Source of the DNA: Methanofollis fontis
GTDB lineage: Archaea > Halobacteriota > Methanomicrobia > Methanomicrobiales > Methanofollaceae
NCBI RefSeq assembly: GCF_004297185.1
Contig: NZ_PGCL01000001.1
Span: 124,001-188,000 of the forward strand
Direction of reading: 5' to 3'
Length of the DNA: 64,000 nucleotides
Within the stretch, counting starts at the first letter, position 1. Every line of letters starts with the position of its first letter. The notes beneath the pieces were generated by a model. It had not been told where the DNA came from. It searched no databases and saw only the letters and a list, made by a program, of their open reading frames with translations. Position numbers and translations under genes: made by a program. Below, piece by piece: positions 28,584 to 44,424 of this stretch.

Positions 28584-31500
28584 TTAACGCCGCTGCATGT
28601 AGAGGTATGCACCGGCGGCCACGACCACGATCACAATGACCAGGATGATCCAGGTCATCGGGAGACCGCCCTCACCGGACGGTGCTGCAGTGGTCGAGGG
28701 AACGGTCGTCACCGGGGGCACCGTGGTCGACGGGGTCGTCGGTTCCTGCGTGACCGGGGTCACGACTGCAGCGTCGGTGAAGAGACCGTAGGTGCTGAAG
28801 TGGGTGATCGACGCTGTCACAGTGTGGGTGGCGGCGTCAACGACCGTCGGGACGTTCTCCCAGACCTGGGTCGTCGGGTTGTACCACTTCACGACAAGAT
28901 TGTCCGGGTTGCCGCCTGCCTCTGCAAGCGCCGTGGCCCATTCCTCATCGCTCAGGTTGAAGGTGAGGTCGATTGCCGGGGCGAAGGTGGCGCCTGCCGG
29001 CGAACACTCCACCGCATACCCAAGGAAGGCGAACGAGACACCGGACGGGACCGCCGGCACATCGTCGAGTTCACTGATCTCGATCTCCTTCAGGGCATTG
29101 CCGTCGGCGTCGAGGGCGGTCACACCCGTATTCAGGTAGAGGTCAGCGCGTTTCTCCTGAGAGTAGACCATGTAGGGCTTGAGCACACCGCCCCAGGAGG
29201 CGGTGAGGATCTCGGCCGAACCGGTCGAGGTGGAGGTGGTCACGGAGCTGCCGCCGCCGCCACCGCCGCCACTCGGGGCGTTCACGGTGATGGTGGCGAC
29301 CGCCGAGTCGTTGCCGAGCGGACCGGTGACCGTCAGGTTCGCCACATAGGTGCCGGCGTTGACATAGACATGGGTCGGGTTCTGCTCGATGGAGGTGGCG
29401 CCGTCACCAAAGTCCCAGGCCCATGCGGTGATGTTCCCGGTGGAGAGGTCGGTGAAGGTGACCGTCAGCGGGGCGGTGCCGGTGGTCGGGGTTGCGGTGA
29501 AGACTGCCGCCGGCACCGGTGAGGTGACGACGAGCGTCTGCTGGGTGGTGTCGCTGCCGCCAAAGCCCGTCACCGTCAGGTTCACGAGGTAGGTGCCGGG
29601 TGCGGCGTAGGTGTGGGTCGGCGGGTTCTGCACGGTGGAGGTGGTGCCGTCGCCGAACTCCCATGCCCAGGTGTTGATGTTCCCGGTGGACTCGTCGGCG
29701 AAGGTGACCGCCAGCGGGGCAAACCCGGTCGTCGGGGTCATGTTGAAGTCTGCCACCGGGGCACCGGGGGTGCGCACCTGGATCTGGTGGACGCCAAAGG
29801 CCTGGACCGTGCCGTTCACATGTTCGGCCACCAGGTAGACACCATAGGTGCCGGCGAGCAGACCGTCGGTCGGGACCGAGACGGTGGTGGTGTTCGAGGC
29901 GACTGCATACCCGGCGGCGTCAGGGCTTGCATAGATGTTGCCGTAGAGTTTCTTTGTCGCCGGGATGCCGTCATAGGTCAGGTTGGCGCGGATCATGTCC
30001 ACATTGAGGGCGCTAGCGTCGATACCGACCGTCGCATCCCAGGTGGCGTCCCTGAGCACGACCGCCGAAACACGCCGGGCGGATGTGGTGAAGGAGGCAT
30101 CGAAGTCGGTGCCGCGGTTGACGGATGCGGGCACCGTCCCGACCTCGTTGGTGTTCATCACGGTGAACGGCATCGCCTCAACAAAGCCGATGCGGTCGTC
30201 GTCCACGCTGATGGCGGCGATGATGTAGTCACCGGCCGGGAAGACGAGGTCCGGGAGGGCCTGCGTGCTGAGGCGGTAACCGGTGCTCAGGTTCACCTGG
30301 TTGGCAGACAGCGCCAGCGTGTCCATGATCTTCCCGGAGGCCGGGATGGTGATGGCATTGCCCTGCTGGGTGCCCGGCACCTCAGAGAGGGTGCCGATGT
30401 CGTTGACCGTATACTTGCAGTAGCCGCCGTTGATGAAGAACCAGGCGTTCTGCTGGATCAGTTTGTTGTAGTCGACGTCACCCTCGGCAGATTTGCCCTC
30501 GTTTGCCATCTGGGCAAGATAACTCTCGTTCGCCTCGAGGATCAGGAGGTTGGCTCCGTCGATGTAGGGTGCCTGCACCTGGAAGTTGAGCACGCTGCCC
30601 GGGTTATAGGTCCAGATATTGTCATAGGTGTCGGCACCGGTGTAGGTCGCATTGGCGGTGTCATCGACATCCACATAGGTGTCGTTCGTGACCTGACCCA
30701 CATGCGTCACCGAGCGGGCGATGTCGCCGAGCGTTGGGAAGGGCACCTCGCGGGCATTGTAGAGGGTAACCGACCCCTGTGCGGTGAGGTCAAGCTGCCG
30801 CATCGCCGTGAAGTTCGTGTCGATGCCTGAGATCGTGCCCATCTTTGTCGAATTTATCCAGGCCATGTAGTTGTAATACAGGTGGAAGGGCACATAGGCG
30901 ACGTTCTCCGCCTCGTCGAGGGCGGCAAACACCATGTTCCGGTTGCCGACCGAAATGCTGACACTCCCCGCACCGACGGCGTCGGTCGAGGTGAAGAAGA
31001 TCTCCTGTGTGTCGTTGTCCATGAGGCGGACGGTGTCCGCACCGGCGACGTTCCAGTTGAAGTTCAGCGTCTCTTCGGCCTCGACATAGTCGTCACCATC
31101 GGTTCCGGCGATGGCGAAGGCGTTGATCACCGGCGGGACGGTGTCGATCGTGAAGCTCCAGTTGAGGTAGCGATCGGACGGCGGGAGCAGGAGGTCGGTG
31201 CCGGTGACGTTCACGTACCAGACCCCGTCGGCCATCGCCGGCGGTGTCATATTAACAACATAGCCTTCAATATAATCGAAATCCAGCGGGATGGTCTGCG
31301 CCCCGTAGAGCGTCATGGTGAAGGTGGCCGGATTGATCTGCTGGGCAAAGGCAGAGATCTGCACAGGCTGCACATTGCTGGCGCCTGTCGGGTACGGCCT
31401 CGAGAAACCGACCGGCGAAACCTCGATCAGTTTTTCCACGGTGTCTCGGTTTCCTTTCGGGTCGCTGGCCATCACCTTGAGGGTCACGGCCTCATAGACC

Positions 31501-32180
31501 GGCCAGGTGACCTGGGTGTCGAAGGTCCAGGTGTCGGAGGCGGTCTGCGTCAGCGGGAGTACAACAGTCTGGTTGTAGGTGCCGTTGTCAATCCATGCGG
31601 TGGCACTGTTGCCCCAGACGCCACCGACATCCATGATGCTGCCGGTGATGCTGAAGGTCGAGGAGACCGTGGCAGGCGTGGTGATGGTGATGGCAGGGGG
31701 GACCTGGTCGAGGGTGGCGACCGTGCCGTTCTGGATGGTGACACTCGTCTTCAACTCAACGAGATCGGTGTCTCGTACCGAATTCACCTTGATCGTAATC
31801 GGAGAGATGCTTCCATCAGAAGGATCCTTGACCGCTCCAAACCTCAGATCAGCCAGCAAGACTGGGCCAATCGGGTAACCGGATGCATCAAAACCATTGA
31901 TCGTGATGACATTGCCCACCGGGTTGATGTTCGATGCATTCTTTTTCACCCCATCTACATAGGCAATGATCGTATCATTAAAGGTCAGCTGGACATTATA
32001 TGCCCCGGCTGCCGGATCAAACTGGTTATCCAGATAAAGATGAACCGTTCCAGGATCAGCCTGCGTTACGTCTGTCGCATTGGTCACATAGACCGTCCCT
32101 GTTCCAGCCGCCTGCGCCGTTCCAAGGCAGCAAAGCAGCAAAAAACAGGAGATAAACAATAATCGGGATTTATCCATCAT
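28584..32180 (-). CDS. Large PKD-domain surface protein with cohesin-like head and membrane anchor
   Basis: A 1198-residue secreted protein, last in the four-gene operon. A signal peptide (LLFISCFLLLCCLGTAQA) is followed by a cohesin-like module at about 25-135 (VHLYLDNQFD, YNVQLTFNDTIIAYV, LLADLRFGAV). Several beta domains fill residues 145-800. Two PKD domains follow (about 805-985), each with WxFGDG and a NLTVTG end. A glycine run links to a domain beginning SAEILTASWGGVLKPY. A TTPSTTVPPVTT stalk and one helix (WIILVIVIVVVAAGAYLYM) with QRR form the anchor. Its start overlaps the preceding stop (ATGA). Many NxT/S sites suggest N-glycosylation. It may anchor partner proteins (inference). 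Confidence 0.88.
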   Translation of the reverse strand: MMDKSRLLFISCFLLLCCLGTAQAAGTGTVYVTNATDVTQADPGTVHLYLDNQFDPAAGAYNVQLTFNDTIIAYVDGVKKNASNINPVGNVITINGFDASGYPIGPVLLADLRFGAVKDPSDGSISPITIKVNSVRDTDLVELKTSVTIQNGTVATLDQVPPAITITTPATVSSTFSITGSIMDVGGVWGNSATAWIDNGTYNQTVVLPLTQTASDTWTFDTQVTWPVYEAVTLKVMASDPKGNRDTVEKLIEVSPVGFSRPYPTGASNVQPVQISAFAQQINPATFTMTLYGAQTIPLDFDYIEGYVVNMTPPAMADGVWYVNVTGTDLLLPPSDRYLNWSFTIDTVPPVINAFAIAGTDGDDYVEAEETLNFNWNVAGADTVRLMDNDTQEIFFTSTDAVGAGSVSISVGNRNMVFAALDEAENVAYVPFHLYYNYMAWINSTKMGTISGIDTNFTAMRQLDLTAQGSVTLYNAREVPFPTLGDIARSVTHVGQVTNDTYVDVDDTANATYTGADTYDNIWTYNPGSVLNFQVQAPYIDGANLLILEANESYLAQMANEGKSAEGDVDYNKLIQQNAWFFINGGYCKYTVNDIGTLSEVPGTQQGNAITIPASGKIMDTLALSANQVNLSTGYRLSTQALPDLVFPAGDYIIAAISVDDDRIGFVEAMPFTVMNTNEVGTVPASVNRGTDFDASFTTSARRVSAVVLRDATWDATVGIDASALNVDMIRANLTYDGIPATKKLYGNIYASPDAAGYAVASNTTTVSVPTDGLLAGTYGVYLVAEHVNGTVQAFGVHQIQVRTPGAPVADFNMTPTTGFAPLAVTFADESTGNINTWAWEFGDGTTSTVQNPPTHTYAAPGTYLVNLTVTGFGGSDTTQQTLVVTSPVPAAVFTATPTTGTAPLTVTFTDLSTGNITAWAWDFGDGATSIEQNPTHVYVNAGTYVANLTVTGPLGNDSAVATITVNAPSGGGGGGGSSVTTSTSTGSAEILTASWGGVLKPYMVYSQEKRADLYLNTGVTALDADGNALKEIEISELDDVPAVPSGVSFAFLGYAVECSPAGATFAPAIDLTFNLSDEEWATALAEAGGNPDNLVVKWYNPTTQVWENVPTVVDAATHTVTASITHFSTYGLFTDAAVVTPVTQEPTTPSTTVPPVTTVPSTTAAPSGEGGLPMTWIILVIVIVVVAAGAYLYMQRR

Positions 32181-32941
32181 TGCACCTCCTCAATTGTATT
32201 ATGATGTCTTCTCCAACATATTAAACCAGCAACACAAATTGATATAAAGATTCCGGAACACGAGAGGGGCGATTTCTGCGGAGAGGTCTGCGTAGCGACA
32301 GTTGAAGCCTCAGATGCCGAAATACCCGTTGTAACAGTGATCTCCTCTGCTGTTGTGGCGATCGGAGTTATGTCGGATTCGGGTGCGCCGCCGGTGTCAT
32401 CACCATTGTCTTCCTGAACCGAGGGTCCAGATGTAGCAACTTCTGTAGTTTGTGGAGTTGTATCTTCTGAACCTCCGGGAGTCTGAATACCGGCAGAGTC
32501 ATCTGAGTCTTCCGGACCCTCTTCTGTCGGGGTAACCGGCACTGCATAATCAGCATTGGTCCGCGGAATTTCATCAGATCTCTGGTTGAGCAGAGAGCGT
32601 ACCCTGATATCCAGTGAAGCAGGATCACCCGTCACCGTCAACGAGGCCACAGGAACATCCCCGGTGAGTATTTCAGAAACCTGGAATCCGGCCAGAATCA
32701 CCATACCGTCCTGCTGATCATTGACCGCCCCGCTGAAGGGGGAGGAGAGTGTAACGCCCGACACCTGAACATCCTCCGGATAGAGAAGGACGATATCAAA
32801 CGCACCAAGCCCTATGCCGTCATCCGGCACACCGGCGACGATAAGAGAATTGTTCTCGTAGATGACAGAAGCGGCAATAGTCGGTGAAACCAGACTAATT
32901 GTCAGAACAGCCAGAAAAATCAAAAATGGTGATTTTTTCAT
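32177..32941 (-). CDS. Short cohesin-like protein with C-terminal membrane helix
   Basis: A 254-residue protein: signal peptide, one cohesin-like module (about 24-130), a long acidic Ser/Thr/Pro linker (about 131-220) and a C-terminal helix (GIFISICVAGLICW) followed by RRHH. The cohesin-like strands include GLGAFDIVLLYPEDVQVSGV, then VILAGFQVSEILTGDVPVAS and LDIRVRSLL. With its single binding module on a flexible tether, it looks like a wall or membrane docking post. AAGGAGG precedes its ATG, nine bases after the preceding stop. Confidence 0.85.
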   Translation of the reverse strand: MKKSPFLIFLAVLTISLVSPTIAASVIYENNSLIVAGVPDDGIGLGAFDIVLLYPEDVQVSGVTLSSPFSGAVNDQQDGMVILAGFQVSEILTGDVPVASLTVTGDPASLDIRVRSLLNQRSDEIPRTNADYAVPVTPTEEGPEDSDDSAGIQTPGGSEDTTPQTTEVATSGPSVQEDNGDDTGGAPESDITPIATTAEEITVTTGISASEASTVATQTSPQKSPLSCSGIFISICVAGLICWRRHHNTIEEVQ

Positions 32942-32950
32942 ATTACCTCC

Positions 32951-35900
32951 TTAGTTGAGATCAGGGATTAGCCCTGCATCATACTGGGCAATCCTGAGTG
33001 CATCAGCAATATTGACCATCTGGTCACCTGTGACATCACAGTAGCCATAGGTTTCGGGGGCACCCTTAATATACGCATCAAACTGGGCAACACGAAGGGC
33101 ATCCCAGATACCAACAATGTCCTCCCCGACAAGTGACTGACCCGCAAGACCTCCGGTGATCCTGATTGAGACTTCAGAAACGCCATCAGGTGCATTGTAA
33201 ATGACGATAGTCGCATTGGTGGTTACAAACTCCTGATACGGATCCAGATTGGAGAACGAACCATTCCTGACCTCATATTCACTCGAGTTCAGAATCTCTC
33301 CGTTCAGCGTGACCACCGGGTCGTTCAGCATGAAGCGCTCCGGGAACTCAAGGGCAAGCCCAAGCATTCCGCCGTTGCCAACAAGTGTCGCGTTGTAGGT
33401 GGCGTTCTCGGCAAAGCCCGCCGAAAGCACGGCCGGAACCTCGGAGACACCGCCCAGTGAACCGCTCCCCTGCGAGAGGATGAGGCGCGGCGTCGTGAGA
33501 TCGGTCGGCATCATCACCGTGACACTGGTGTTGCTGTTCGCTGTGACGGCAACGGTGTCGTTGACGGTGATGTAGCCCTCCTTCGAGACCGAGAGCGGGT
33601 AGGTGCCCGCGAGCAGACCGGTGAAGGTGTGGCTCGATGCCGTCTGGCTCTCGCCGTCAAGAATGATCGTCGCCTCCACCGGGTTGCTGTCCTCATCGGT
33701 GACAGAGACTTCCACAGCGCCGCGGCCGGTGACGCTCAGGCTCTTCTCCGAGAGGGTGACGTTCATCTCGTCGTAGAGCGGCCTGAACCGGAGCTGGAAG
33801 TCAAGGGTGCCCACCTGCTCGGGCGTGACGTCGAAGACATAGTCATAGGTCGAACCGCTTTCCCAGTGGTCGGGCTCGATGTAGATCGAGGTGGCGTCAT
33901 CGTTGACCGAGCTGCTCAGCCTCTCATAGGAGACCGTCTCCCCGTTCTCGGTGATGGTGCCGTTTGCAAAGGTGAAGCCCTCGATCGGAACCTCGATCAG
34001 CGGCGAGAGAACGTTTTCACCCGAAACGACCCGCAGGGTCAGTTCGCCGGACTCGTTCGCCACCAGCGGGGACGGACTTGAGGTGAGGCTGACGGAGTCG
34101 AGCATCGCCTGCGGCAGGGCATCGCCGAGGAGGTCCATGTTCTCGGATACGCTGAGCACACCCGTTGCTCCGGTGTCCGGGAAGCCGTCGCCGAGCATCT
34201 GGATGGTGCCGCTGTCCTCGATCGTGTCATCGATCTCGTTGATCGGTGCGCGCTGGTCGTTCTCGACCGACACAAGGATCGCACCCGTTCCGCCACCGGA
34301 CCTGGTCACCTCGACCTGGTGCTCCTTCACCGTGGAGTAGTCATCGATCGTGCGTTTCAGACTGCCGACCGCCATCATCGCCGCCATCTGGTCGGCAGTG
34401 AGGGTGTAGGTCTCCTTCGGGGTGTCTGAATCGACGGTGATGGTGCAGATAGGAGTGCCGTCGATGGAGACATCGATCGTACCCGAACTCACCACGATCG
34501 GCTGACAGTGGATCAGGGCATCGATCGCCGCCTGGGTGGCCCAGGTGTAGCCCCAGCTGCCGCCGGAATCGTACTGGTTGATCAGCCAGCCCACGCCTCT
34601 CTGGATCGTCCCGTTGTCCGCAGTGATGCCGGTTGCGTTCAGGGCGAGCACGGCATAGGCGGTGCTCTCGGTCCTGCGGCCGTTGCTGTACCAGCCGTAG
34701 TACGAGTCTGCATCCCAGTGCCCGTCGCCGGAGTCCTGGTTTGCAATGAGCCAGGCGGTCGCATTCGCCTTTGCATTGTCGATCTGGGTTTGTGTTACAT
34801 CGACAGAGGTCGTGCCATAGGACTCCAGACCCCAGAGGCCGAGCGCCGTTGCCATTGCCTTATCGTCGTTGCCGCCCCAGTGCCCGTCTTCAGCCTGATT
34901 CTCAATGAAGTAGCGGGTGGCGTTCTGCATGTTCTCCGTCATGTAGGTCGCATAGGGCTCGGAGACCGTGCCCTGCGTCCTGATCATGTCATGGATCAGC
35001 ATCACAAACCCGGTGTTCGAGGTCGGGGTCCAGGCATGGCAGACGCCGGCGCTCCACGTCCAGGTGCCGCTCGAGGGGTTGTCCGGGTTCTCGTGGAACC
35101 ACTCGACGAGTTTCTCGAAGTTGACGGTGCCAGAGGAGACGGTATCGCCGGTGCTGATCTTGCCGGTCAGCAGGCGGTTTAAGTCCTCAGTGGACTCGTT
35201 CACCCGCGCCAGCGTGTAGGCGGCGTACGAACTCGAGGACGACTCAGAGGCACCGTAGCCCCAGAGGCTCCATCCGCCGTCAGAGTGCTGGCCGCGCGTC
35301 CCCCCGTTCACCAGGACATTGATGCCGCCCTGCACCGAGGCGTTGGCATCGTCGCGGATCGTGGCGTAGTTGGTCGGTTTGTCAGGGCGGTCAAGATAGT
35401 AGTTCTTCACATTCAGCGAGGCGAGCATCTGTGATGTGGTCTGCTCGACACAGCCGTAGGGGTAGCGGACGAGATATCCAAGCCCCGTCAGGGTTCGGCC
35501 GCGGGCGCCAGACTGGACGGTGATGGTGGTGACATTATCATAGGTGTTGTTGGTGTGCAGGGTGTTGAAGGTCATACCGAAGGTGCTGTCGCTGTTGGCG
35601 TTCACCGAATCCACCGAACTGACCGGGATGGATGGGATCCAGATGAAGACATCACGAGGAGAGGTCTTCGAGACCGTCTTCCCGTTTGCCGACACGGTCA
35701 GGTTGATTGAATCGGCGGCAATGGTGCCGGGTCTCGAGGTCCGCATAGAGAAGCCAATATAGTTCCAGTAGCCGCCACCCATCCAGCGGTCGCCTTCAGC
35801 ATCGCTATAGACTTCCATTCCGGCAGGAACGCTCAGGTTGTAATGCACCCTTCCGCTCTCACTCGGCTTGACGTACCAGGCCACCCCGAACCACTGCTCT

Positions 35901-36775
35901 GCCTGGGCACGGGACGGTCCATAGACATAGGGGTAGAATTCAAGCGTGTATTCCCTTGCCGTCACCGACCGTTCGGCAGCTGGAGTGCCGACAACCGGGA
36001 GGCCGGTATCGGAGGTGACCGTCACATTGAGGGTGTAGATGCCCCCCGCCGTCGGCGTCCACGCGGTCCGCTGCACGTCCTGTCCATATGCCGCCAGCGT
36101 GACCCCGCTCCGCTCGGTGGTGTTGAAGACCGAACCGTCGGGGGCGTAGATGGTGGTGTTGATCGTCAGTGCCGAGGTCGGGATGCCGCGTTGGTTCACC
36201 ACTGTGAAGATGCCGAGGGTCTCTGCGCCCTCGGGCACACGCTCACTCGGGACACCAACTCTCGATACGATGCGGTTGACCCGCTGCGTGGTGATCGTGG
36301 CGTTCGTGATCGAGTCCACCGGGATGTCGTCGCCGCTCGTCGAGTTCAGGAAACCGTAGTTGTTCACGACCGCAACAACATCGGTCGATTTGCCGGTGTC
36401 GTCAGCAGTCCGCAGGCGCACCGTGAAGAGGTCGGCGCTGCCCGAAACACCATCGAGCGTTGCGTTCACCGCAGCGACGCGGATACGCCCGCTCTGGGCG
36501 TTGTAGGCGGTGTCATTCACGTCGCCGGAGAAGAGCGGGCCGATCGTCACGCCGCCGGGTTCGGTGACCAGGGTGACCACCGAGGGGTCCCAGCGCAGGT
36601 CGATATCAAACCCACCGAGATGTTCAACATTCTCAACCCGCAGTGTCAGATCGGTGATATCACCGAGTGCACTGGTAGAATTCTGGGGCGTGACCATAAG
36701 GTCAGCCGCGGATGCCGCTGAAACCAGAAGGGCGGTGAGGATGAACCCCACCACCAGGATCTTTCTCGTATTCAT
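32951..36775 (-). CDS. Cohesin - thioester (alpha-2-macroglobulin-like) - dockerin surface protein
   Basis: The start is the ATG at 36775 with GAGGTGAT upstream; the longer frame begins at a poorer TTG. The 1274-residue product begins with a signal peptide, then a clear cohesin module at about 23-165 (DLTLRVENVEHLGGFDIDLR). Macroglobulin-like beta domains lead to YPYGCVEQTTSQM, an intact thioester motif (Cys442, Gln445) of the alpha-2-macroglobulin/complement family. An alpha/alpha toroid with repeats such as WLIANQDSGDGHW follows (about 430-800). PEGA-like and other beta domains come next, then a dockerin-like pair whose second loop is DVTGDQMVNIADALRIAQ. It has no anchor, so attachment is probably through its dockerin. 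Confidence 0.9.
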   Translation of the reverse strand: MNTRKILVVGFILTALLVSAASAADLMVTPQNSTSALGDITDLTLRVENVEHLGGFDIDLRWDPSVVTLVTEPGGVTIGPLFSGDVNDTAYNAQSGRIRVAAVNATLDGVSGSADLFTVRLRTADDTGKSTDVVAVVNNYGFLNSTSGDDIPVDSITNATITTQRVNRIVSRVGVPSERVPEGAETLGIFTVVNQRGIPTSALTINTTIYAPDGSVFNTTERSGVTLAAYGQDVQRTAWTPTAGGIYTLNVTVTSDTGLPVVGTPAAERSVTAREYTLEFYPYVYGPSRAQAEQWFGVAWYVKPSESGRVHYNLSVPAGMEVYSDAEGDRWMGGGYWNYIGFSMRTSRPGTIAADSINLTVSANGKTVSKTSPRDVFIWIPSIPVSSVDSVNANSDSTFGMTFNTLHTNNTYDNVTTITVQSGARGRTLTGLGYLVRYPYGCVEQTTSQMLASLNVKNYYLDRPDKPTNYATIRDDANASVQGGINVLVNGGTRGQHSDGGWSLWGYGASESSSSSYAAYTLARVNESTEDLNRLLTGKISTGDTVSSGTVNFEKLVEWFHENPDNPSSGTWTWSAGVCHAWTPTSNTGFVMLIHDMIRTQGTVSEPYATYMTENMQNATRYFIENQAEDGHWGGNDDKAMATALGLWGLESYGTTSVDVTQTQIDNAKANATAWLIANQDSGDGHWDADSYYGWYSNGRRTESTAYAVLALNATGITADNGTIQRGVGWLINQYDSGGSWGYTWATQAAIDALIHCQPIVVSSGTIDVSIDGTPICTITVDSDTPKETYTLTADQMAAMMAVGSLKRTIDDYSTVKEHQVEVTRSGGGTGAILVSVENDQRAPINEIDDTIEDSGTIQMLGDGFPDTGATGVLSVSENMDLLGDALPQAMLDSVSLTSSPSPLVANESGELTLRVVSGENVLSPLIEVPIEGFTFANGTITENGETVSYERLSSSVNDDATSIYIEPDHWESGSTYDYVFDVTPEQVGTLDFQLRFRPLYDEMNVTLSEKSLSVTGRGAVEVSVTDEDSNPVEATIILDGESQTASSHTFTGLLAGTYPLSVSKEGYITVNDTVAVTANSNTSVTVMMPTDLTTPRLILSQGSGSLGGVSEVPAVLSAGFAENATYNATLVGNGGMLGLALEFPERFMLNDPVVTLNGEILNSSEYEVRNGSFSNLDPYQEFVTTNATIVIYNAPDGVSEVSIRITGGLAGQSLVGEDIVGIWDALRVAQFDAYIKGAPETYGYCDVTGDQMVNIADALRIAQYDAGLIPDLN

Positions 36776-36787
36776 CTCCAAATCACC

Positions 36788-39700
36788 TCACACGATCCTG
36801 AAGTAGGGATCCCTCAGGCCCACATTCTTCTGGGCGATGAACATCGCATCGCCGACCTCGATCGCACGGTTCTCGTGGACATCCGTCTGGAGGAAGGAGG
36901 TCGTTCCGACGGTCGGCTTCGACTCCAGCCCGACAACCTCGCGGAGCACCCGGAGAGTATCAGCCTGGTTCACCGAACCATCGCCGTTCGCATCGCCATA
37001 CAGGAGGAGGACGGCGCTGCCGTCCGTCACTTCGACCGGGATCTGGTACTCGTCGGCGTCAAATAACTCGACATCCACCAGACCGAGCGCCGTCTCATCG
37101 CCGCCCGAACCAATCACCGAGATGTGGACGGTCGCCACGGTCAGGTTGCCGCTGAAGCTCTCCGCCTGACAGTTGCCAAAGATGACATAGCCCTCGTCGA
37201 CATGATTCAGGTTGACGGTAAGCGCACCGACATCACCGGCAGATACACCGGTCACCGTGACCGCCGAGGGATCGAAGGTGAAGGTCATCGCGAACGTTGC
37301 GAGATTCTCCGCACCCCCTACCACGATCGGCAGGTCATAGGTCGTGCCGGGCACGAGCACCAGGTCTGTCGGAAGTTCGATGGAGGTGGTCGGGTGCAGG
37401 TAGCAGTGAACCGTTTTGGTCACCCGGTTGTTCGCAAACGTGGTCTCGTAGTCGGTGACGCCGTCCGGGTTCACCTCGAGGGCGAGGGTGTAGGTTCCTG
37501 GGTCGGCGAGGAGGGTCTTGTTCCGCCAGACCGTATAGGACTCGCCGACGCCGAGCGCCGGGACGGCGATCTCCTCGACCGCCTGTCCGGTGATCAGGTA
37601 GTCCATCGTCGTGGCAACGGCCGCCACCTCACCCTGGTTGGTGACCACGAGGGCGATTGGCGTGGCGGTGCCGCTCTGGACCACCGTCGGGGGCACAATG
37701 ATCTCCGCCGCCAGGTCGGGGGCGGTGATCCGCACCGGGTAGACGATGTTGTTGTTTGCATAACAGATCTCATCGATCGTGCGGTCAGGGTTGACGGTGA
37801 CGTTCACCTTCGCATCCACCGGCAGGTGATAATCGCTGGTGTTGATGCCATAGTCGGAGGCATAGGCCTCGACATTGGTATGCAGGGCCTGTTTCGTCTC
37901 ACCCATCGGAATGTTGCCGTTATAGGTGGTGGACTGGTCCTTGTCTCCGATCGCCGCCCGGACCACGATCTCCTCATCGGTATAGATGAAGTCGGCGGTG
38001 CCCTGGTTGGTGATGTAGAGATAGAGGTCGTTCACCTTCACCGAGTCGTCCCGGTTCAGCTTCACCACGTGGGGAGCGCTGACCGATGGCACGAAGTCGG
38101 GGAGGGCAGCAGTTGCAAGACGGAAGGTGCCGTCATAATACCAGGAATTGGATTTGACGATCTCGTCACCGTCATAGCAGACCACCTTGTAGGGCACATT
38201 GTCAGAGAATCCGAGCATAATGCGCTCTTCTCTCAGTGCCGCAGAGGGGGCATGGATGGTCAGCGTCGCCCGACCACTGGAATCGGTGTATCCGGTCAGC
38301 ACCTCGGAGTAGGGGTCAGGATACTCCATGGCCAGGTGATCAATGTTCAGCGGGCGCACATCGTCATTATAGGTGCTCGAGGCATCCATTGCGGCAGCGC
38401 CAAGGAAGAACCCGACCTTCGCGTTGCTGATCGGGTTGCCGTCACTGTCGGCGACGGTGAAGGTCACCGGCACCGTTTCCCCGACGAGCACATCAGGCTT
38501 CACTGTGTAGGAGACACAGGCGCCGGGCACATCAAAGAAAGAGACACCTACACCCATTAACGAGCCATCTGGCTGCAGAACCGAAGCATGTGCCTCATAG
38601 GTGCCGTTCTGTGAGGGGGTGACGTTCTTCGCCCATGTACCGGTAAAGGCAAGGGTGTCGGCAAATTCCGTCCCGAGCGTCTTCCAGTTGAAGTACGGGC
38701 TTGCAGTAAACACCCCGCGCTCGACTATCGGCGTGTCATCCGGCCCGTAGGAGTAGAGTGAGACCATGTACGAACCGCTGCCCTGATAGTCGACCTCCAT
38801 CCACCGGCTTTCGGTGGCGGGTTCGAGGCACCTGAGGGCGGCCGCCGTCTGCTGGTATCCGGTGATGATGCCGGGGTCAATCCGGCTGAACCTAACAGGA
38901 TAGCCCTGGATATAATCCAGAACCCAGGCAGAGGAGCTGATGCCGTCGGTGATCAGGATCACGTCCTCGGATGCCTTCCCGGACACGTTCAGCGTGAAGG
39001 TGCAGGTGCCGTCGGCAGCGGTGGTGTTCGTCTGCACACCGTCAGCGGTGTAGAGTCGAACCGTCTTTCCGGCATCATCGGTCACCTCGCCGGTGGTGCC
39101 GTTCACGGTGATCACCGAGGCGGTGAGGCTGGCCGTGTCCGCTGGCACCGAGTGGTAGTCGCCCTGACTCCAGGTCGCAGCCCATTCATAGTCCATGATG
39201 ACGAGGTAGGTGCTGTCGAGCCCTTCGACGCTTTCCGGCACCGTGGGTGTCACCCGGTGAAGGGTCCACGGCGACATCGAGCCATAGACAACCGAGACCA
39301 TATACGAGTCATAGCTGCCGTAAAACTCCTCATCGGGGTCAACAAACTTGACGACCGCCACATAGCAGTCCTCGGGCATCGTGAACTGATAGACACCGAT
39401 GCCGTTTCTCACCTGCACCGTCCCGACAATCTCCTCAGGCTCCATGCCGCCGGTCGCCTCGACCAGGGCGGCATCGTCCACCGGCATGCCGGCGGCGAGC
39501 GCTCCGCCGACCTCTGCCGGCAGGGAGAGGATCTCTGTCTCGGTGAAGGCGGTCACGTACACCGCATAGTCCTTGGAAGTGATCGTCCCACCAATGCCAT
39601 GAGGTTCTGCCACCTGCAGGGCGATGTCAATCGTGCTGCCGGCAGGGCAGATCGCCTGTTTGGGCGAGGACATGCCTTCATACCAGACTTCATAGGCAAA

Positions 39701-42058
39701 TGCCACGGACCCGGCCCTGCGACCATCGATCGTGACGCTGAGATCCGAGCCATATACATTTATATTGAATTTCGAAAAGTCGACCGTTGCTTCGACCACG
39801 CCGTTCACCGGCGTCAGGGTCTCATCAAAGAACGTGGTCGTAGAATTCGCCACCTTCAGCTGCACCGTATCGGAGTAGGCCGATCCATCGACGTCAAGGA
39901 GCGGGTAGCGCATTGTGATGGCGCCGTCCGGCGGGGCGATGAACGACTGCGACTCAAAGAACGGCACATAGATGTAGCCATTTCCTCCACCCTCAGAAGA
40001 GGGCTTGAGTTTCTGCGAACTCAGGGTGCGGCCCTGCCAGGTCGCCTCGGTATAGAAATAGGCGTTCACCGGGAAGCTGGTGATGTCGATGGTGGCCGTT
40101 GCCCTGCCATCGGCATCGGTCACGCCCGATGCGTTGATGAAAACCGGGTTATAGTAGTTATAGTAGACCTTGAATTCCACCGTTTCTCCTTCAATCGGAG
40201 CGCCGGCTGTTGCGTTCCAGCAGACGCCGAGCATTGTCACGGTGTTCGGGTCGGTGTCAGCATCATATGAGGGACCGCCGAAGAGCTCGGTGAGATAGGG
40301 CGAGGGCAGTGTGCCGTGCAGACCGTCGGTCGCCTCGACCGCCAGATAGGAACTGATCCGGCCTGCACCGTAGAGGTTGTTCTCCTCATAGGTCGCCATC
40401 GCCGTACCGTCCTCCTTGATGTGGACGGCCGTCTGCATCAGAGTCTGCTTCACCTGTGCCGGCGTGAGGGTGTCGTTGCCGGCGAGCATCAGGGCGACGG
40501 TGCCGGCCACACCCGGCGTTGCCATCGAGGTGCCGTCCATGACGGCGTACTGGCCGTTCGGATAGGCGGAGAGGATGCCCACACCAGGCGCCATCAGGTC
40601 GGGCTTGATGTAGGGGTTCGTCCGGTTCACCGGCCCGATAGAGCTGAAACTTGCCCGGTAGTCCATGCAGTAGTCGGTAGCGCCGACGGTGATCACGTCC
40701 TCGGCCGTTCCCGGCGTGCCGATGGTGCCGGTGCCGACGTCGCCGTTATTGCCGGCCGCAACGACCGCCACCACGCCGAGGTCGGCGAGGTTGTTTAGCG
40801 TCAGGTCATATGCGGTGTTGCCGTCGGACTGGCGTGCCTCTGCGATAGCCGCTCCTTCGAACATCACCGACTCGTTTCCGTTGTTGGTGACCTGCAGGAG
40901 CCAGACACCGTTCCAGTTTCCGCTGTTGCTGGCATACGGCGCCTTGAACTTCACCACATCCGACGACTGGTCAAAGCCGTTCCAGTCGATGTAGCCGCCG
41001 GTCGCAGTTACATTGTTGGGGGCATAGAGGGTCATCGAGAGGTTGGCGGGTTCGGCGTCATTATAACCATACTCCTGCTGGAGGGCGTAGCCGCCGACGA
41101 CAAACTGGGGTTCCAGGAGTCCTCCGTTCGAGGCGATATTTCCACCCACCTCAAGCGTCAGGTTGAGCGTTTCACCGGCCGCAAGAGAGAAGTACTCCTG
41201 TTTGTTTGCGTCCCACGCATAGCTTCCCACACTGAGGGAGATCACGTCGGCATCGTTCTCGACCGACCATTCGATGCCCTTGATGATGTCGGAGGTCAAG
41301 CCTGAACCTGCCGAGTTCAGCACCTTGGCACCGATCAGTTCGGCTTCGGGTGCGGTACCCAGTATGAGGGCCTGAATGCCATCATAGGTCGAAACCATCA
41401 CTTCGCCGCCGGCCGCCGTGCCGGCACAGTGGGTGCCGTGGCCGTTGTCGTCATAGGCCGAGGTGTTGTCCCCGTTCACAAAGTCGGCAAAGCCGACGAC
41501 ACGCTCGCCGAAGGCCGGGTGCGTCCCGTCGATACCGGTGTCCACCACAGAGATCCGAACACCTTCGCCCATGTTCCCGGCGTCCCAGACGGCCGGGGTC
41601 TCGATCCAGTCGAGATGCCAGGGCAGCATGAACTCATCGCCGCTCCGCATGTACTGGGCATCGACGGTGTCAGAGACCTCAAATACTGGGTCGTCCACCT
41701 GCACCCGCATATCGGGCTCCACATGGTCGACACCGGGCAGGAGGGCAATCCTCTCGATGGTCGACTTATCGGCCTCGACACGGAGCGCATTCACGATCCA
41801 GAACTGTTCCGCCGACTGTGCGGCGTCACTGTCGATTGCACTGATGGATGAGAGCACGGACGCCTGCGTGGCAGCCGCCTGTGCCTTCATCATCGAATAC
41901 GTCGTTCCTCGGTCCGGCTGGTCTGTGAGCACCACAATATACGGCATCGTGTCATCTGTTCCGACAACAGAACCGTCAGGGGCTCCGGCAGCGACACTGC
42001 CAACCAGAACCAGCAGTATGAAAACAGTCAGAAAACTCCGCGTACAAACGCGCGTCAT
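36788..42058 (-). CDS. Subtilisin-like surface protease with CARDB, cohesin and dockerin modules
   Basis: The start is the ATG at 42058, spaced seven to eight bases from GGAGG; a GTG three codons earlier is less likely. The 1756-residue product has a signal peptide, an I9-type propeptide (about 35-120) and an S8 catalytic domain. The triad is Asp173 (SVVDTGIDGTHP), His207 (NGHGTHCAGT) and Ser511 (GTSMATPGVAG), with oxyanion Asn437 (AAGNNGD). An insert of about 125 residues resembling a P-domain jelly roll lies between ISLSVGSYAW and the Asn. Many beta domains follow, including two CARDB domains, a cohesin (about 1560-1680) and a dockerin with loop DANGDGSVNQAD. It leads the operon, 12 bases before the thioester gene. 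Confidence 0.92.
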   Translation of the reverse strand: MTRVCTRSFLTVFILLVLVGSVAAGAPDGSVVGTDDTMPYIVVLTDQPDRGTTYSMMKAQAAATQASVLSSISAIDSDAAQSAEQFWIVNALRVEADKSTIERIALLPGVDHVEPDMRVQVDDPVFEVSDTVDAQYMRSGDEFMLPWHLDWIETPAVWDAGNMGEGVRISVVDTGIDGTHPAFGERVVGFADFVNGDNTSAYDDNGHGTHCAGTAAGGEVMVSTYDGIQALILGTAPEAELIGAKVLNSAGSGLTSDIIKGIEWSVENDADVISLSVGSYAWDANKQEYFSLAAGETLNLTLEVGGNIASNGGLLEPQFVVGGYALQQEYGYNDAEPANLSMTLYAPNNVTATGGYIDWNGFDQSSDVVKFKAPYASNSGNWNGVWLLQVTNNGNESVMFEGAAIAEARQSDGNTAYDLTLNNLADLGVVAVVAAGNNGDVGTGTIGTPGTAEDVITVGATDYCMDYRASFSSIGPVNRTNPYIKPDLMAPGVGILSAYPNGQYAVMDGTSMATPGVAGTVALMLAGNDTLTPAQVKQTLMQTAVHIKEDGTAMATYEENNLYGAGRISSYLAVEATDGLHGTLPSPYLTELFGGPSYDADTDPNTVTMLGVCWNATAGAPIEGETVEFKVYYNYYNPVFINASGVTDADGRATATIDITSFPVNAYFYTEATWQGRTLSSQKLKPSSEGGGNGYIYVPFFESQSFIAPPDGAITMRYPLLDVDGSAYSDTVQLKVANSTTTFFDETLTPVNGVVEATVDFSKFNINVYGSDLSVTIDGRRAGSVAFAYEVWYEGMSSPKQAICPAGSTIDIALQVAEPHGIGGTITSKDYAVYVTAFTETEILSLPAEVGGALAAGMPVDDAALVEATGGMEPEEIVGTVQVRNGIGVYQFTMPEDCYVAVVKFVDPDEEFYGSYDSYMVSVVYGSMSPWTLHRVTPTVPESVEGLDSTYLVIMDYEWAATWSQGDYHSVPADTASLTASVITVNGTTGEVTDDAGKTVRLYTADGVQTNTTAADGTCTFTLNVSGKASEDVILITDGISSSAWVLDYIQGYPVRFSRIDPGIITGYQQTAAALRCLEPATESRWMEVDYQGSGSYMVSLYSYGPDDTPIVERGVFTASPYFNWKTLGTEFADTLAFTGTWAKNVTPSQNGTYEAHASVLQPDGSLMGVGVSFFDVPGACVSYTVKPDVLVGETVPVTFTVADSDGNPISNAKVGFFLGAAAMDASSTYNDDVRPLNIDHLAMEYPDPYSEVLTGYTDSSGRATLTIHAPSAALREERIMLGFSDNVPYKVVCYDGDEIVKSNSWYYDGTFRLATAALPDFVPSVSAPHVVKLNRDDSVKVNDLYLYITNQGTADFIYTDEEIVVRAAIGDKDQSTTYNGNIPMGETKQALHTNVEAYASDYGINTSDYHLPVDAKVNVTVNPDRTIDEICYANNNIVYPVRITAPDLAAEIIVPPTVVQSGTATPIALVVTNQGEVAAVATTMDYLITGQAVEEIAVPALGVGESYTVWRNKTLLADPGTYTLALEVNPDGVTDYETTFANNRVTKTVHCYLHPTTSIELPTDLVLVPGTTYDLPIVVGGAENLATFAMTFTFDPSAVTVTGVSAGDVGALTVNLNHVDEGYVIFGNCQAESFSGNLTVATVHISVIGSGGDETALGLVDVELFDADEYQIPVEVTDGSAVLLLYGDANGDGSVNQADTLRVLREVVGLESKPTVGTTSFLQTDVHENRAIEVGDAMFIAQKNVGLRDPYFRIV

Positions 42059-42100
42059 AGATACCACCTCCGGGGTTATAGAAGAGAAGAAACCCTTATG

Positions 42101-42249: not shown

Positions 42250-43428
42250 ATGGTACAGCCCAGCACCCCCCGGCTGCTGGCAGTGATTATCGGGCTGATT
42301 CTTCTGATTGCCCCCCTTTCTGCCGCAACCGTCACCATGTCACCCTCCACGATCACGGAGGACACCCCTATCACCATCACGGTGCACGACCTCGCAGACA
42401 ACAGTACCTTTATGATACGCGTCTCGGCGTCGATCCCCCTCGACGGAGACGGACGGTTCCAACTGAGCACCAACAACCTCCAGATGCCGTTTGCGCTCGA
42501 TGACGGCCGCGTTTCCATCCATGCAGAGAACGTCAAGGCCGCAAACCTCACTGCCCGCATGGGTGGGCGAGCCATCACCATCTTCGGTGACGGCGAAAAC
42601 GGCGTCGTGGACATGAACCAGATGGGCGACATCCCGCAGGGCCTCATCTCCTACATCACCCTCGAGGGCGTCGGACTCGCCGCCAGCACGCCAGTGGTGG
42701 CATCGGTCGATCTCTCCGGAAAGAAGATCGGGCCCGATGACTCCGTGGTCACCTTCTCGGTGAACGGGTTTACCGGCGGCAGCGCCGATGTGAAGGTCTA
42801 TGTGGACGGTGTCCTCGTCCCGACCACACCGACGACCACCGCACCCTCCTCCAGCGGAGGGGGAGGGGATGACCCGGTGACCACCACCGAACCCGAACCG
42901 GAGAGTGTCACCGTCACCTCCCCGGACAGTGGGTGTGCCCTGTCCTTTGAGAGCGGCGCTCTCGAGGGTGCAGAGAGTGGCGATCTCTCGATATGGGTCA
43001 GCAACCGCGCCGTTCCCGAAGGCTGGACAGCCGTGAAGGGCCCCTATGCGATCCTGCCCGACGGCGTAACCTTTAACCCGTCGGCGACCATCTCCATCAG
43101 CATGGACGGTGTCGGGGACGACACCTCGACCGCCTACACCCTGCTCGCCTGGAACGGTCAGGCCTGGAACCCCCTGCAGAGCAGGATAGAGGGCGACGTC
43201 ATCTCCGCCGAGATCGATGAGGGCGGAGAGTTTGCCCTCGCCACCCCACCCGTGGTGGTGACCACCGCTCCGGCGGCAGGAGAACCGGCAGAGACCGTCA
43301 CCATTATTGAGACGACAGCTGCACCGACCGCCGAACCGACCACCACACCGGCACAGTCCCCCCTCCCGCTCATCTGCACCCTGGGTGCCCTTGGAGCGGC
43401 CGCCGCCATCATCGTGGGCAGGCGATAA
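42250..43428 (+). CDS. Secreted surface protein with C-terminal membrane helix
   Basis: A 392-residue protein with a signal peptide (LLAVIIGLILLIAPLSAA), an N-terminal beta domain (about 27-195), a TTTAPSSSGGGG linker, a second beta domain (about 220-330) and a Thr/Pro stalk ending in a helix (LICTLGALGAAAAIIVG) and RR. The second domain (SFESGALEGAESGDLSIWVS) resembles the C-terminal domain of the large PKD protein in the opposite operon. The tail resembles archaeal sorting signals but lacks the PGF motif. It is divergent from the protease and could share its regulation. Function unknown. Confidence 0.82.
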   Translation: MVQPSTPRLLAVIIGLILLIAPLSAATVTMSPSTITEDTPITITVHDLADNSTFMIRVSASIPLDGDGRFQLSTNNLQMPFALDDGRVSIHAENVKAANLTARMGGRAITIFGDGENGVVDMNQMGDIPQGLISYITLEGVGLAASTPVVASVDLSGKKIGPDDSVVTFSVNGFTGGSADVKVYVDGVLVPTTPTTTAPSSSGGGGDDPVTTTEPEPESVTVTSPDSGCALSFESGALEGAESGDLSIWVSNRAVPEGWTAVKGPYAILPDGVTFNPSATISISMDGVGDDTSTAYTLLAWNGQAWNPLQSRIEGDVISAEIDEGGEFALATPPVVVTTAPAAGEPAETVTIIETTAAPTAEPTTTPAQSPLPLICTLGALGAAAAIIVGRR

Positions 43429-43443
43429 ATCCGGTGAACCGAT

Positions 43444-44424
43444 ATGAGTGAAGAAAAGCCCGCAATTGTTGAGGCCCTTGAACCCGGGGCGGTCCAGAAG
43501 GACCTCCTCGCCATCGCCCTCTGGACGGTGGCGACCGTCCTCTGCATCTATCTCCCGGTGCTCAACGAGAGCGTGCTGCGGGTGGTCTTCGGCCTCCCCA
43601 TGGTCCTCTTCATCCCGGGCTATGCACTCATCGCCGCACTTTTTCCCGCAAAGGACGATCTCGACGGTATCGAACGGGTCGCCCTCTCCTTCGGGCTCTC
43701 GATCGCCGTCGTCCCCCTCATCGGACTGGCGCTCAACTACACGCCCTGGGGCATCCGCCTCGATCCGATCCTGACATCCCTGGTGATCTTCACCTTTGCG
43801 ATGATCGCCGTGGCGCACTGGCGGAGAATGGTGCTGCCACCCGAACAACGCTTTGTCGTTCCCTTTGCCTCCATGGCGATAGAGGCGCGTGAAGAACTCT
43901 TCCCGGAAGAGGCCTCTCGCCTCGACCGGGCGCTCTCGGCCATACTCGTCCTGGCCATCATCGCCGCCGTGGCGACGACGGTGTATGTGATCGTCGTCCC
44001 CAAGGAGGGCGAACACTTCACCGAGTTCTACATTCTTGGTGACGGTGGGAAGGCCGCAGACTATCCGACCGACTTTTTTGCAGGGACGAATCAGTCCCTG
44101 ATCATCGGCGTGGGCAACCACGAGTACAGGAACGTGACCTACACCGTCGAGGTGCTGCTCACAAACCAGACCTTCGATACGGCGACAAACACCAGCACGG
44201 TGCATGAAATGGAGCGTATCGGACGGTTTTCACTTGAGATCCCGCACAACGAAACGGTCGAAGAACCATATGCGTTCAGCGTCGACCGGACGGACATGAA
44301 CAGGCTCCAGTTCCTCCTCTTCAACGAAACCGTGCCCGCCGACGCCATCTGGGGCACAGACCGGGTCAACGCCAGTTACCGGGACCTGCACCTCTGGATC
44401 AGGGTCAGGCCGCCGGTTCAATAA
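43444..44424 (+). CDS. DUF1616-type membrane protein
   Basis: A 326-residue protein with four to five membrane helices in the first 190 residues, then an extracytoplasmic beta domain (about 190-326) rich in Asn-glycosylation sites. The segments LPMVLFIPGYALIAALFPA and FGLSIAVVPLIGLALNYTPW match the DUF1616 family, often found in archaeal surface or glycosylation loci. It starts 15 bases after the surface protein gene, so they form an operon. The final 20 bases overlap a convergent gene. Role unknown. Confidence 0.85.
   Translation: MSEEKPAIVEALEPGAVQKDLLAIALWTVATVLCIYLPVLNESVLRVVFGLPMVLFIPGYALIAALFPAKDDLDGIERVALSFGLSIAVVPLIGLALNYTPWGIRLDPILTSLVIFTFAMIAVAHWRRMVLPPEQRFVVPFASMAIEAREELFPEEASRLDRALSAILVLAIIAAVATTVYVIVVPKEGEHFTEFYILGDGGKAADYPTDFFAGTNQSLIIGVGNHEYRNVTYTVEVLLTNQTFDTATNTSTVHEMERIGRFSLEIPHNETVEEPYAFSVDRTDMNRLQFLLFNETVPADAIWGTDRVNASYRDLHLWIRVRPPVQ

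What the first reader, a model, noticed from the sequence alone, without database searches (positions are those of the whole stretch)
35430..35470. Intact CVEQ thioester motif in an archaeal secreted protein
YPYGCVEQTTSQM (Cys442 to Gln445) fits the CxEQ thioester of alpha-2-macroglobulins and bacterial homologues, including the flanking YPYGC and TTS. Toroid repeats follow, as in thioester domains. Yet the protein is framed by a cohesin in front and a dockerin behind, and lacks the full multi-domain macroglobulin length. A thioester here could bond covalently to proteases, surfaces or other cells.
Basis: partly seen in the sequence, partly recalled or inferred. Interest (0 to 1): 0.85.

Follow-up and report, generated by a model that had tools for sequence, protein, structure and literature searches.

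The report
Archaeal protease–thioester surface gene module
A methane-producing archaeon carries a secreted relative of complement and alpha-2-macroglobulin, with an intact covalent-bonding motif, in a conserved operon with a protease and two membrane anchors that share docking modules, which suggests a surface device that bonds covalently to its targets; no function has been shown by experiment.

Summary
YPYGCVEQTTSQM (C442/Q445) lies in a 1274-aa secreted protein on the minus strand of a Methanofollis-type methanogen. It is a genuine complement/A2M-type thioester domain (TED). Pfam and profile searches identify it. Two AlphaFold models match CD109, TEP1, A2M, C3 and C4 (TED alone: TM 0.76 to C4Adg). 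Cys, Glu and Gln are invariant down to about 23% identity. The cohesin-like N terminus and C-terminal dockerin are confirmed.

Archaeal TED proteins with intact CxEQ were published in 2021 (PMC8416519). What I did not find reported is the setting. The gene is the second of four: dockerin-tagged subtilase, dockerin-tagged TED protein, and two membrane-anchored cohesin-like proteins. The subtilase is directly upstream of TED in 20 of 25 TED-bearing genomes of the order, and fused to TED in one genome outside it. Within the genus the two occur in exactly the same 5 of 12 genomes. In four high-GC genomes the thioester-shielding CTMG is a separate gene, split at a disordered linker.

Best reading: a surface-tethered, protease-coupled covalent capture module. 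Thioester formation, trigger and target remain untested.

The parts
36788..42067 (-). Gene 1: secreted S8 subtilase with signal peptide, catalytic domain, Ig-like/CARDB domains, cohesin-like module and C-terminal dockerin
   Evidence: Pfam S8 2.7e-53, CARDB; catalytic D176/H210/N440/S514 present in 14/14 homologues; start probably the ATG at 42058
36791..37390 (-). Cohesin-like module and dockerin at the C terminus of the subtilase
   Evidence: family profile matches A. fulgidus cohesin 2xdh 4.4e-5 and dockerins, best 3e-3
32951..36775 (-). Gene 2: secreted TED protein, 1274 aa
   Evidence: homologues in Methanofollis, Methanoculleus and Methanogenium
36287..36703 (-). N-terminal cohesin-like module of the TED protein
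   Evidence: PDB cohesins 3l8q 1.4e-5, 2xdh 1.1e-3
35627..36280 (-). Two MG-like beta domains before CUB/TED
   Evidence: all-beta in the AlphaFold model; Foldseek alignment spans them
34493..35509 (-). Thioester (TED) alpha/alpha toroid, inserted between two CUB-like beta segments (about 35510-35614 and 34214-34492)
   Evidence: Pfam PF07678; model pLDDT 86, pTM 0.84; C4Adg TM 0.76
35426..35464 (-). Thioester motif YPYGCVEQTTSQM (Y438, Y440, C442, Q445)
   Evidence: same YPYGC-x-EQ as E. coli YfhM
35036..35038 (-). His580 in the motif VCH, a candidate counterpart of the complement C3 catalytic His
   Evidence: aligned with VIH of canonical A2Ms but not; alignment-dependent, a lead only
34109..34213 (-). 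Disordered, variable CUB-CTMG linker (candidate cleavage site)
   Evidence: pLDDT below 50 at model residues 688-722; variable with gaps; the place where four high-GC genomes split the gene
33722..34108 (-). C-terminal macroglobulin-like (CTMG) domain with PLYDE (Y1001 from the ATG)
   Evidence: Foldseek alignment; LY/MY at this site in 18 of 21 sequences
33512..33691 (-). PEGA domain
   Evidence: Pfam 2.9e-10
32960..33145 (-). C-terminal dockerin of the TED protein
   Evidence: profile vs PDB dockerins 7.9e-10
32177..32941 (-). Gene 3: 254-aa protein with signal peptide, cohesin-like module, low-complexity linker and weakly hydrophobic C-terminal segment (probable anchor)
   Evidence: hhalign to the TED-protein cohesin profile E 8.6e-5, prob 60; no convincing PDB hit; hydropathy
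28584..32180 (-). Gene 4: 1198-aa anchor with cohesin-like N terminus, two PKD domains and C-terminal transmembrane segment
   Evidence: PKD 2.1e-33; NagJ X82 cohesin 0.003; hhalign E 8.8e-7; TM

Best explanation
This is a four-gene archaeal surface module. The TED protein is a shortened member of the complement/A2M (thioester-containing protein) superfamily: cohesin-MG-MG-CUB-TED-CUB-CTMG-PEGA-dockerin. It most likely forms an internal Cys442-Gln445 thioester after secretion, shielded by Tyr438/Tyr440 and by the CTMG domain. Dockerins on the TED protein and on the co-encoded subtilase attach both to cohesin-like modules of the two membrane-anchored partners, so protease and thioester protein sit together on the cell surface. 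Proteolysis, by the partner subtilase or by a foreign protease, most plausibly in the disordered CUB-CTMG linker, would release CTMG and expose the thioester. The thioester would then acylate a nearby nucleophile (protease, other cell, virion or matrix). Shown by computation: domains, fold, invariant motif residues, gene order, co-occurrence, one fusion, the split gene. Inferred: thioester formation, docking pairs, the cleavage trigger, the target.
For: TED: Pfam above cut-off; profile hits to CD109, TEP1, C3 and C4; Foldseek CD109 8e-29 over 961 columns and C4Adg TM 0.76. C/E/Q invariant in 23/23 and CxEQ in every further family TED found. The motif YPYGCVEQ carries the two tyrosines that shield the thioester in E. 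coli/Salmonella A2M (PMC4498604; YfhM AYPYGCLEQ). Dockerins and cohesins. Operon: TED followed by the two anchor genes in 8/8 loci (the small gene of L020 and L022 read) and throughout the order; subtilase directly upstream in 20 of 25 TED-bearing genomes of the order; same order in the distant genome L068 (27% TED identity). Subtilase and TED fused in L069. Subtilase catalytic residues intact in 14/14. Subtilase orthologue present in exactly the same 5 of 12 same-genus genomes as TED; in G004 the locus keeps only the PKD anchor. The own genome has one TED and two S8 genes. Distances S8 vs TED Mantel r 0.90. CTMG is a separate gene in four high-GC genomes, split at the linker.
Against: No thioester has been measured, and TED folds without a thioester exist (complement C5, which also matches). 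Five of 25 TED-bearing genomes of the order lack a directly adjacent subtilase gene (G044, G012, G539, G554, G037; in G539 one lies about 1.3 kb upstream). No recognisable bait-region domain. The shielding CTMG tyrosine is Asn in three homologues. Cohesin-dockerin pairing within the operon is not tested, and the genome holds other dockerin proteins. The evidence for a cohesin in gene 3 is weak. The motif block in the larger model has only pLDDT 55-68. The Mantel correlation cannot separate co-evolution from shared ancestry.
Confidence: 0.5

Rival explanations
1. Protease trap: the TED protein works as an A2M-like inhibitor that covalently catches foreign proteases, or keeps the co-encoded subtilase in check, and the partner protease is its client or an independent effector.
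For: Same superfamily core as A2M, with the bacterial-type motif; protease gene adjacent or fused.
Against: No MG1-6 ring or bait-region domain to form a cage; no A2M_BRD hit, whereas the canonical A2M L071 shows these domains. A permanent fusion in L069 fits partnership better than inhibition.
Confidence: 0.18
2. Covalent adhesin: the thioester is reactive without proteolytic triggering and glues the cell to surfaces or syntrophic partners; the subtilase only matures surface proteins.
For: Surface anchoring through cohesins and dockerins; patchy distribution (25 of 232 genomes of the order) typical of adhesins; covalent thioester adhesins exist in Gram-positive bacteria (own knowledge).
Against: The motif has the shielding Tyr pair, and a CTMG-like shield is present; tight coupling to a protease with an intact catalytic set.
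Confidence: 0.17
3. Self-assembly: the thioester cross-links the module to the cell's own S-layer or glycans, giving a covalently stabilised protease-bearing coat.
For: PEGA, PKD and Ig-like modules in the operon; anchoring architecture; many N-glycosylation sequons.
Against: No specific evidence for self-targets; the noncovalent dockerins would be largely redundant.
Confidence: 0.08
4. Degenerate or purely structural TED: no thioester forms, and the toroid is a binding domain as in complement C5.
For: TED folds without a thioester exist, and C5 structures match the model.
Against: C, E and Q are invariant at about 23% identity across the family; C5 lacks the CxEQ motif (own knowledge).
Confidence: 0.07

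Closest known systems
Archaeal alpha-2-macroglobulin homologues with intact CxEQ (Makarova et al. 2021, PMC8416519)
   Same: TED with CxEQ in secreted archaeal proteins of varied architecture, some near Ig-domain proteins and endoproteases; Methanomicrobia included. The window's family may overlap with their 27 proteins (their accession tables were not open to me).
   Different: The main text does not mention cohesins, dockerins or subtilisins, nor a conserved four-gene order, a protease-TED fusion or a split CTMG.
Bacterial A2M (E. coli YfhM, Salmonella A2M)
   Same: YPYGC-[LV]-EQ motif with both shielding tyrosines; MG-CUB-TED-CTMG order; Foldseek 4u48 5e-25
   Different: No N-terminal MG stack or bait-region domain; partner is a subtilase rather than PbpC; cohesin/dockerin tethering
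Metazoan TEPs, CD109 and complement C3/C4
   Same: TED/CUB core; coupling of a serine protease with a thioester protein
   Different: MG ring absent; motif YPYGCVEQTTS rather than PYGCGEQNM; the protease is an S8 subtilase, not a chymotrypsin-fold convertase
Non-cellulosomal cohesin-dockerin systems of archaea (Archaeoglobus fulgidus; ANME, PMC9012536)
   Same: Cohesin and dockerin modules on archaeal surface proteins without a multi-cohesin scaffoldin
   Different: Here they are carried by a protease, a thioester protein and membrane anchors; PMC9012536 does not mention macroglobulin, thioester or protease cargo

Membership tests
Thioester-containing protein (TEP/A2M/complement) superfamily | CxEQ thioester motif | tested here: met
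   C442, E444 and Q445 invariant in 23/23 and CxEQ in all further family loci
Thioester-containing protein (TEP/A2M/complement) superfamily | alpha/alpha-toroid TED homologous to C3d/C4d | tested here: met
   Pfam PF07678; TM 0.76 to C4Adg 1hzf
Thioester-containing protein (TEP/A2M/complement) superfamily | TED inserted in CUB, followed by a C-terminal MG domain | tested here: met
   predicted secondary structure and Foldseek alignment across the whole 853-aa model; rests on a prediction
Thioester-containing protein (TEP/A2M/complement) superfamily | Chemically formed Cys-Gln thioester | not testable with these tools
   needs mass spectrometry or methylamine labelling
Alpha-2-macroglobulin protease trap (A2M proper, bacterial or animal) | MG1-MG6 ring and bait-region domain | tested here: not met
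   no MG2, MG3, A2M_BRD or A2M Pfam hit, whereas L071 shows them; the N-terminal region is a cohesin plus two beta domains
Bacterial YfhM-type A2M | neighbouring pbpC | tested here: not met
   neighbours are S8, cohesin-like and PKD genes; YfhM/PbpC shown
Cohesin-dockerin complex | C-terminal dockerin with two repeats | tested here: met
   27 PDB dockerins, best 7.9e-10; the first repeat of the window copy has lost its calcium-loop pattern
Cohesin-dockerin complex | Cohesin partner that binds that dockerin | not testable with these tools
   cohesin-like modules are present in all four proteins; binding untested
Cellulosome | Multi-cohesin scaffoldin and carbohydrate-active enzymes | tested here: not met
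   no glycoside hydrolase or scaffoldin among the four operon products
Gram-positive thioester adhesin (TIE) domain | the TIE thioester-domain Pfam family | tested here: not met
   no such hit among Pfam matches at E up to 1; fold and motif are of complement type

The most novel reading that the evidence does not exclude
A protease-activated covalent tagging system on archaeal cells, built like a minimal complement cascade: a surface-docked subtilase acts as the convertase, releasing the CTMG shield of a neighbouring thioester protein that then covalently marks or captures foreign cells, viruses or proteases.
Probability: 0.25. Interest if true: 0.88.

Novelty: new variant of a known kind. Interest (0 to 1): 0.62.

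Why it matters
Complement and A2M couple proteolysis to covalent capture, and whether archaea have anything comparable is open; the 2021 survey only proposed immunity-like roles. Here a thioester protein and an apparently active protease are inherited together, carry matching docking modules, and are fused in one genome. The system is small and present in methanogens of cultured genera (Methanofollis, Methanoculleus, Methanogenium), so the question becomes testable. It would also give archaeal cohesin–dockerin pairs, long without a clear role, a concrete cargo.

Tried and rejected
(1) Chance motif: rejected by Pfam, profile, fold and invariance. (2) Squalene-hopene-cyclase-like enzyme: that profile match scores high (6.9e-17) because of the shared toroid repeats, but the CxEQ site, CUB flanks and TEP fold hits decide against it. 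(3) Full A2M trap: no MG1-6 or bait domain. (4) Cellulosome: no scaffoldin or glycoside hydrolases. (5) Known anti-phage system: PADLOC gives only subtilase-type hits for gene 1 and nothing for the TED protein. (6) Position of the C3-type catalytic His: one search puts His580 on it, shifts the alignment; left open. (7) hhalign of the family profile to a single YfhM sequence was uninformative; hmmsearch aligned only the TED start. (8) Paper searches with macroglobulin plus dockerin found nothing; subtilisin plus thioester plus macroglobulin plus archaea found nothing relevant. (9) One related-loci run failed on the frame and was repeated; several alignment calls failed on coordinates.

Full report
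WHAT IS THERE. The ORF at 32951-36781 (minus strand) encodes a secreted protein. Residue numbers in the alignments count from the TTG and are two higher. The window lies in a 2.36-Mb genome. Its genus is Methanofollis, because contig G007:C22 of a same-genus genome has the length and the sequence match of JASGMW010000002.1, a Methanofollis MAG.

IT IS A TRUE TED. Pfam TED_complement matches above its cut-off, with PEGA and SQHop_cyclase_C. A profile of 19 archaeal relatives finds CD109 (4.9e-10), TEP1 (1.4e-8) and complement C3 in the PDB. Adding canonical A2Ms to the profile raises this to 2.5e-41, which is partly circular. AlphaFold of residues 170-1022 (pLDDT 80, pTM 0.52) aligns by Foldseek across the whole model to CD109 (8e-29), TEP1, A2M, Salmonella A2M, C3 and C5; the low TM scores reflect uncertain domain orientation. 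The TED alone (pLDDT 86, pTM 0.84) matches C4Adg with TM 0.76 normalised to that fragment. The helix starts directly after the Cys, placing Gln one turn on.

MOTIF. C, E and Q are invariant in 23 of 23 relatives down to 22-30% identity, where only 29 of 853 query positions are invariant; every further family locus also has CxEQ. E. coli YfhM reads AYPYGCLEQTAS, and the published structure assigns its two tyrosines, with a Met and Tyr from the C-terminal MG domain, to shielding the thioester (PMC4498604). The window has the same Y-P-Y-G-C, and LY/MY occurs at a matching place in the CTMG-like domain of 18 of 21 relatives, Asn in three. I take thioester formation as likely, not shown.

ARCHITECTURE. 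N-terminal cohesin-like module, two MG-like domains, CUB–TED–CUB, a disordered linker (pLDDT below 50), a CTMG-like domain, PEGA, and a C-terminal dockerin. Compared with A2M, the MG1-6 ring and the bait-region domain are missing. The first repeat of the window's own dockerin is degenerate, while relatives retain better calcium-loop patterns.

THE OPERON. Upstream lies a 1759-aa S8 subtilase with an intact catalytic set, a cohesin-like module and a dockerin. Downstream lie a 254-aa cohesin-like protein with a weakly hydrophobic C-terminal segment and a 1198-aa cohesin-like, PKD-containing protein with a transmembrane C terminus. The genes are 6 and 9 nt apart, then overlap by 4 nt (counted from the TTG start of the TED gene). 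The same order occurs in all eight database loci from Methanofollis, Methanoculleus and Methanogenium and unnamed Methanomicrobiales (the small gene in L020 and L022 was read). In the order, 25 of 232 genomes carry the TED. In 20 of these the subtilase gene is directly upstream on the same strand; in G539 one lies about 1.3 kb upstream; G044, G554, G012 and G037 lack one directly upstream. The order S8–TED–271 aa–1172 aa also holds in L068, a genome outside the order whose TED protein is 27% identical. In L070 the subtilase is nearby. In L069 subtilase and TED are one 2671-aa polypeptide (S8 1.6e-44, TED 7e-12).

CO-INHERITANCE. In the genus, TED and the orthologous subtilase occur in exactly the same 5 of 12 genomes (1 in 792 by chance, ignoring phylogeny). 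In G004 the PKD anchor remains next to the same flanking gene while the other three genes are gone. S8 and TED distance matrices correlate at r = 0.90, which common descent alone could also give. The own genome has one TED and two S8 genes.

A NATURAL SPLIT. In four high-GC genomes (L069, L070, L101, L102; probably Halobacteria, names not given) the TED gene ends after CUB, and CTMG is encoded by the next gene (E 2.6e-18 to 3e-13); in L069 and L070 that gene ends in a recognisable dockerin. The split falls at the linker that is disordered and variable in the window protein. Since loss of TED–CTMG contact is the activating step described for E. coli A2M (PMC4498604), this linker is my candidate for the control point. 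That is inference.

MECHANISM AND RIVALS. Best reading: subtilase and TED protein are co-docked on the surface, and proteolysis exposes the thioester, which bonds to a nearby target. Rivals: a trap or regulator of proteases, an untriggered covalent adhesin, self cross-linking, a dead thioester. The protease could also act only on foreign proteins. The target is unknown. A His at position 580, invariant in the short clade, might correspond to the C3 histidine that favours hydroxyl targets (own knowledge), but the alignment is unstable.

NOVELTY. Archaeal A2M homologues with intact CxEQ in 27 proteins of 24 genomes, some near endoproteases and Ig-domain proteins, were published in 2021 (PMC8416519). 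That paper's text does not mention dockerin, cohesin or subtilisin, and full-text searches found no paper joining macroglobulin with dockerin; subscription papers are not covered. I therefore file the finding as a new variant of a known kind: the known TED protein set in a conserved, dockerin-tethered protease module.

Noticed in passing
window 42250-44424 (+): A 392-aa surface-type protein gene and a DUF1616 gene lie divergently next to the module; relatives of one or both flank many of the homologous loci, and in L063 and L065 the 392-aa relative itself ends in a dockerin.
   Followed up: partly
L069:7942-17216, L070:8006-18845, L101, L102: High-GC genomes have a two-gene version of the TED protein, with the CTMG half as a separate gene; in L069 the subtilase is fused to TED.
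   Followed up: yes
L071, L072, L075: Canonical A2Ms (L071 checked: MG2, BRD, A2M, TED, receptor domain) with an animal-like PYGCGEQNM/PFGCGEQNM motif in 41-47% GC genomes of the same phylum; a separate lineage from the window family.
   Followed up: partly
G000:C6:12911-14587 (own genome): A second S8 gene with PKD domains and a dockerin (996-aa frame), and four further dockerin proteins elsewhere in the genome.
   Followed up: no
L060:11795-14566: In G037 the ORF upstream of TED matches the subtilase protein over 445 aa but has no detectable S8 domain; the protease may be decayed or split there.
   Followed up: no
L010-L014, L063-L067: A second, longer TED clade (about 1700-2000 aa, motif YPHGCPEQ) with extra cohesin/CARDB modules, in the same order of archaea and mostly with the same gene order.
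   Followed up: partly
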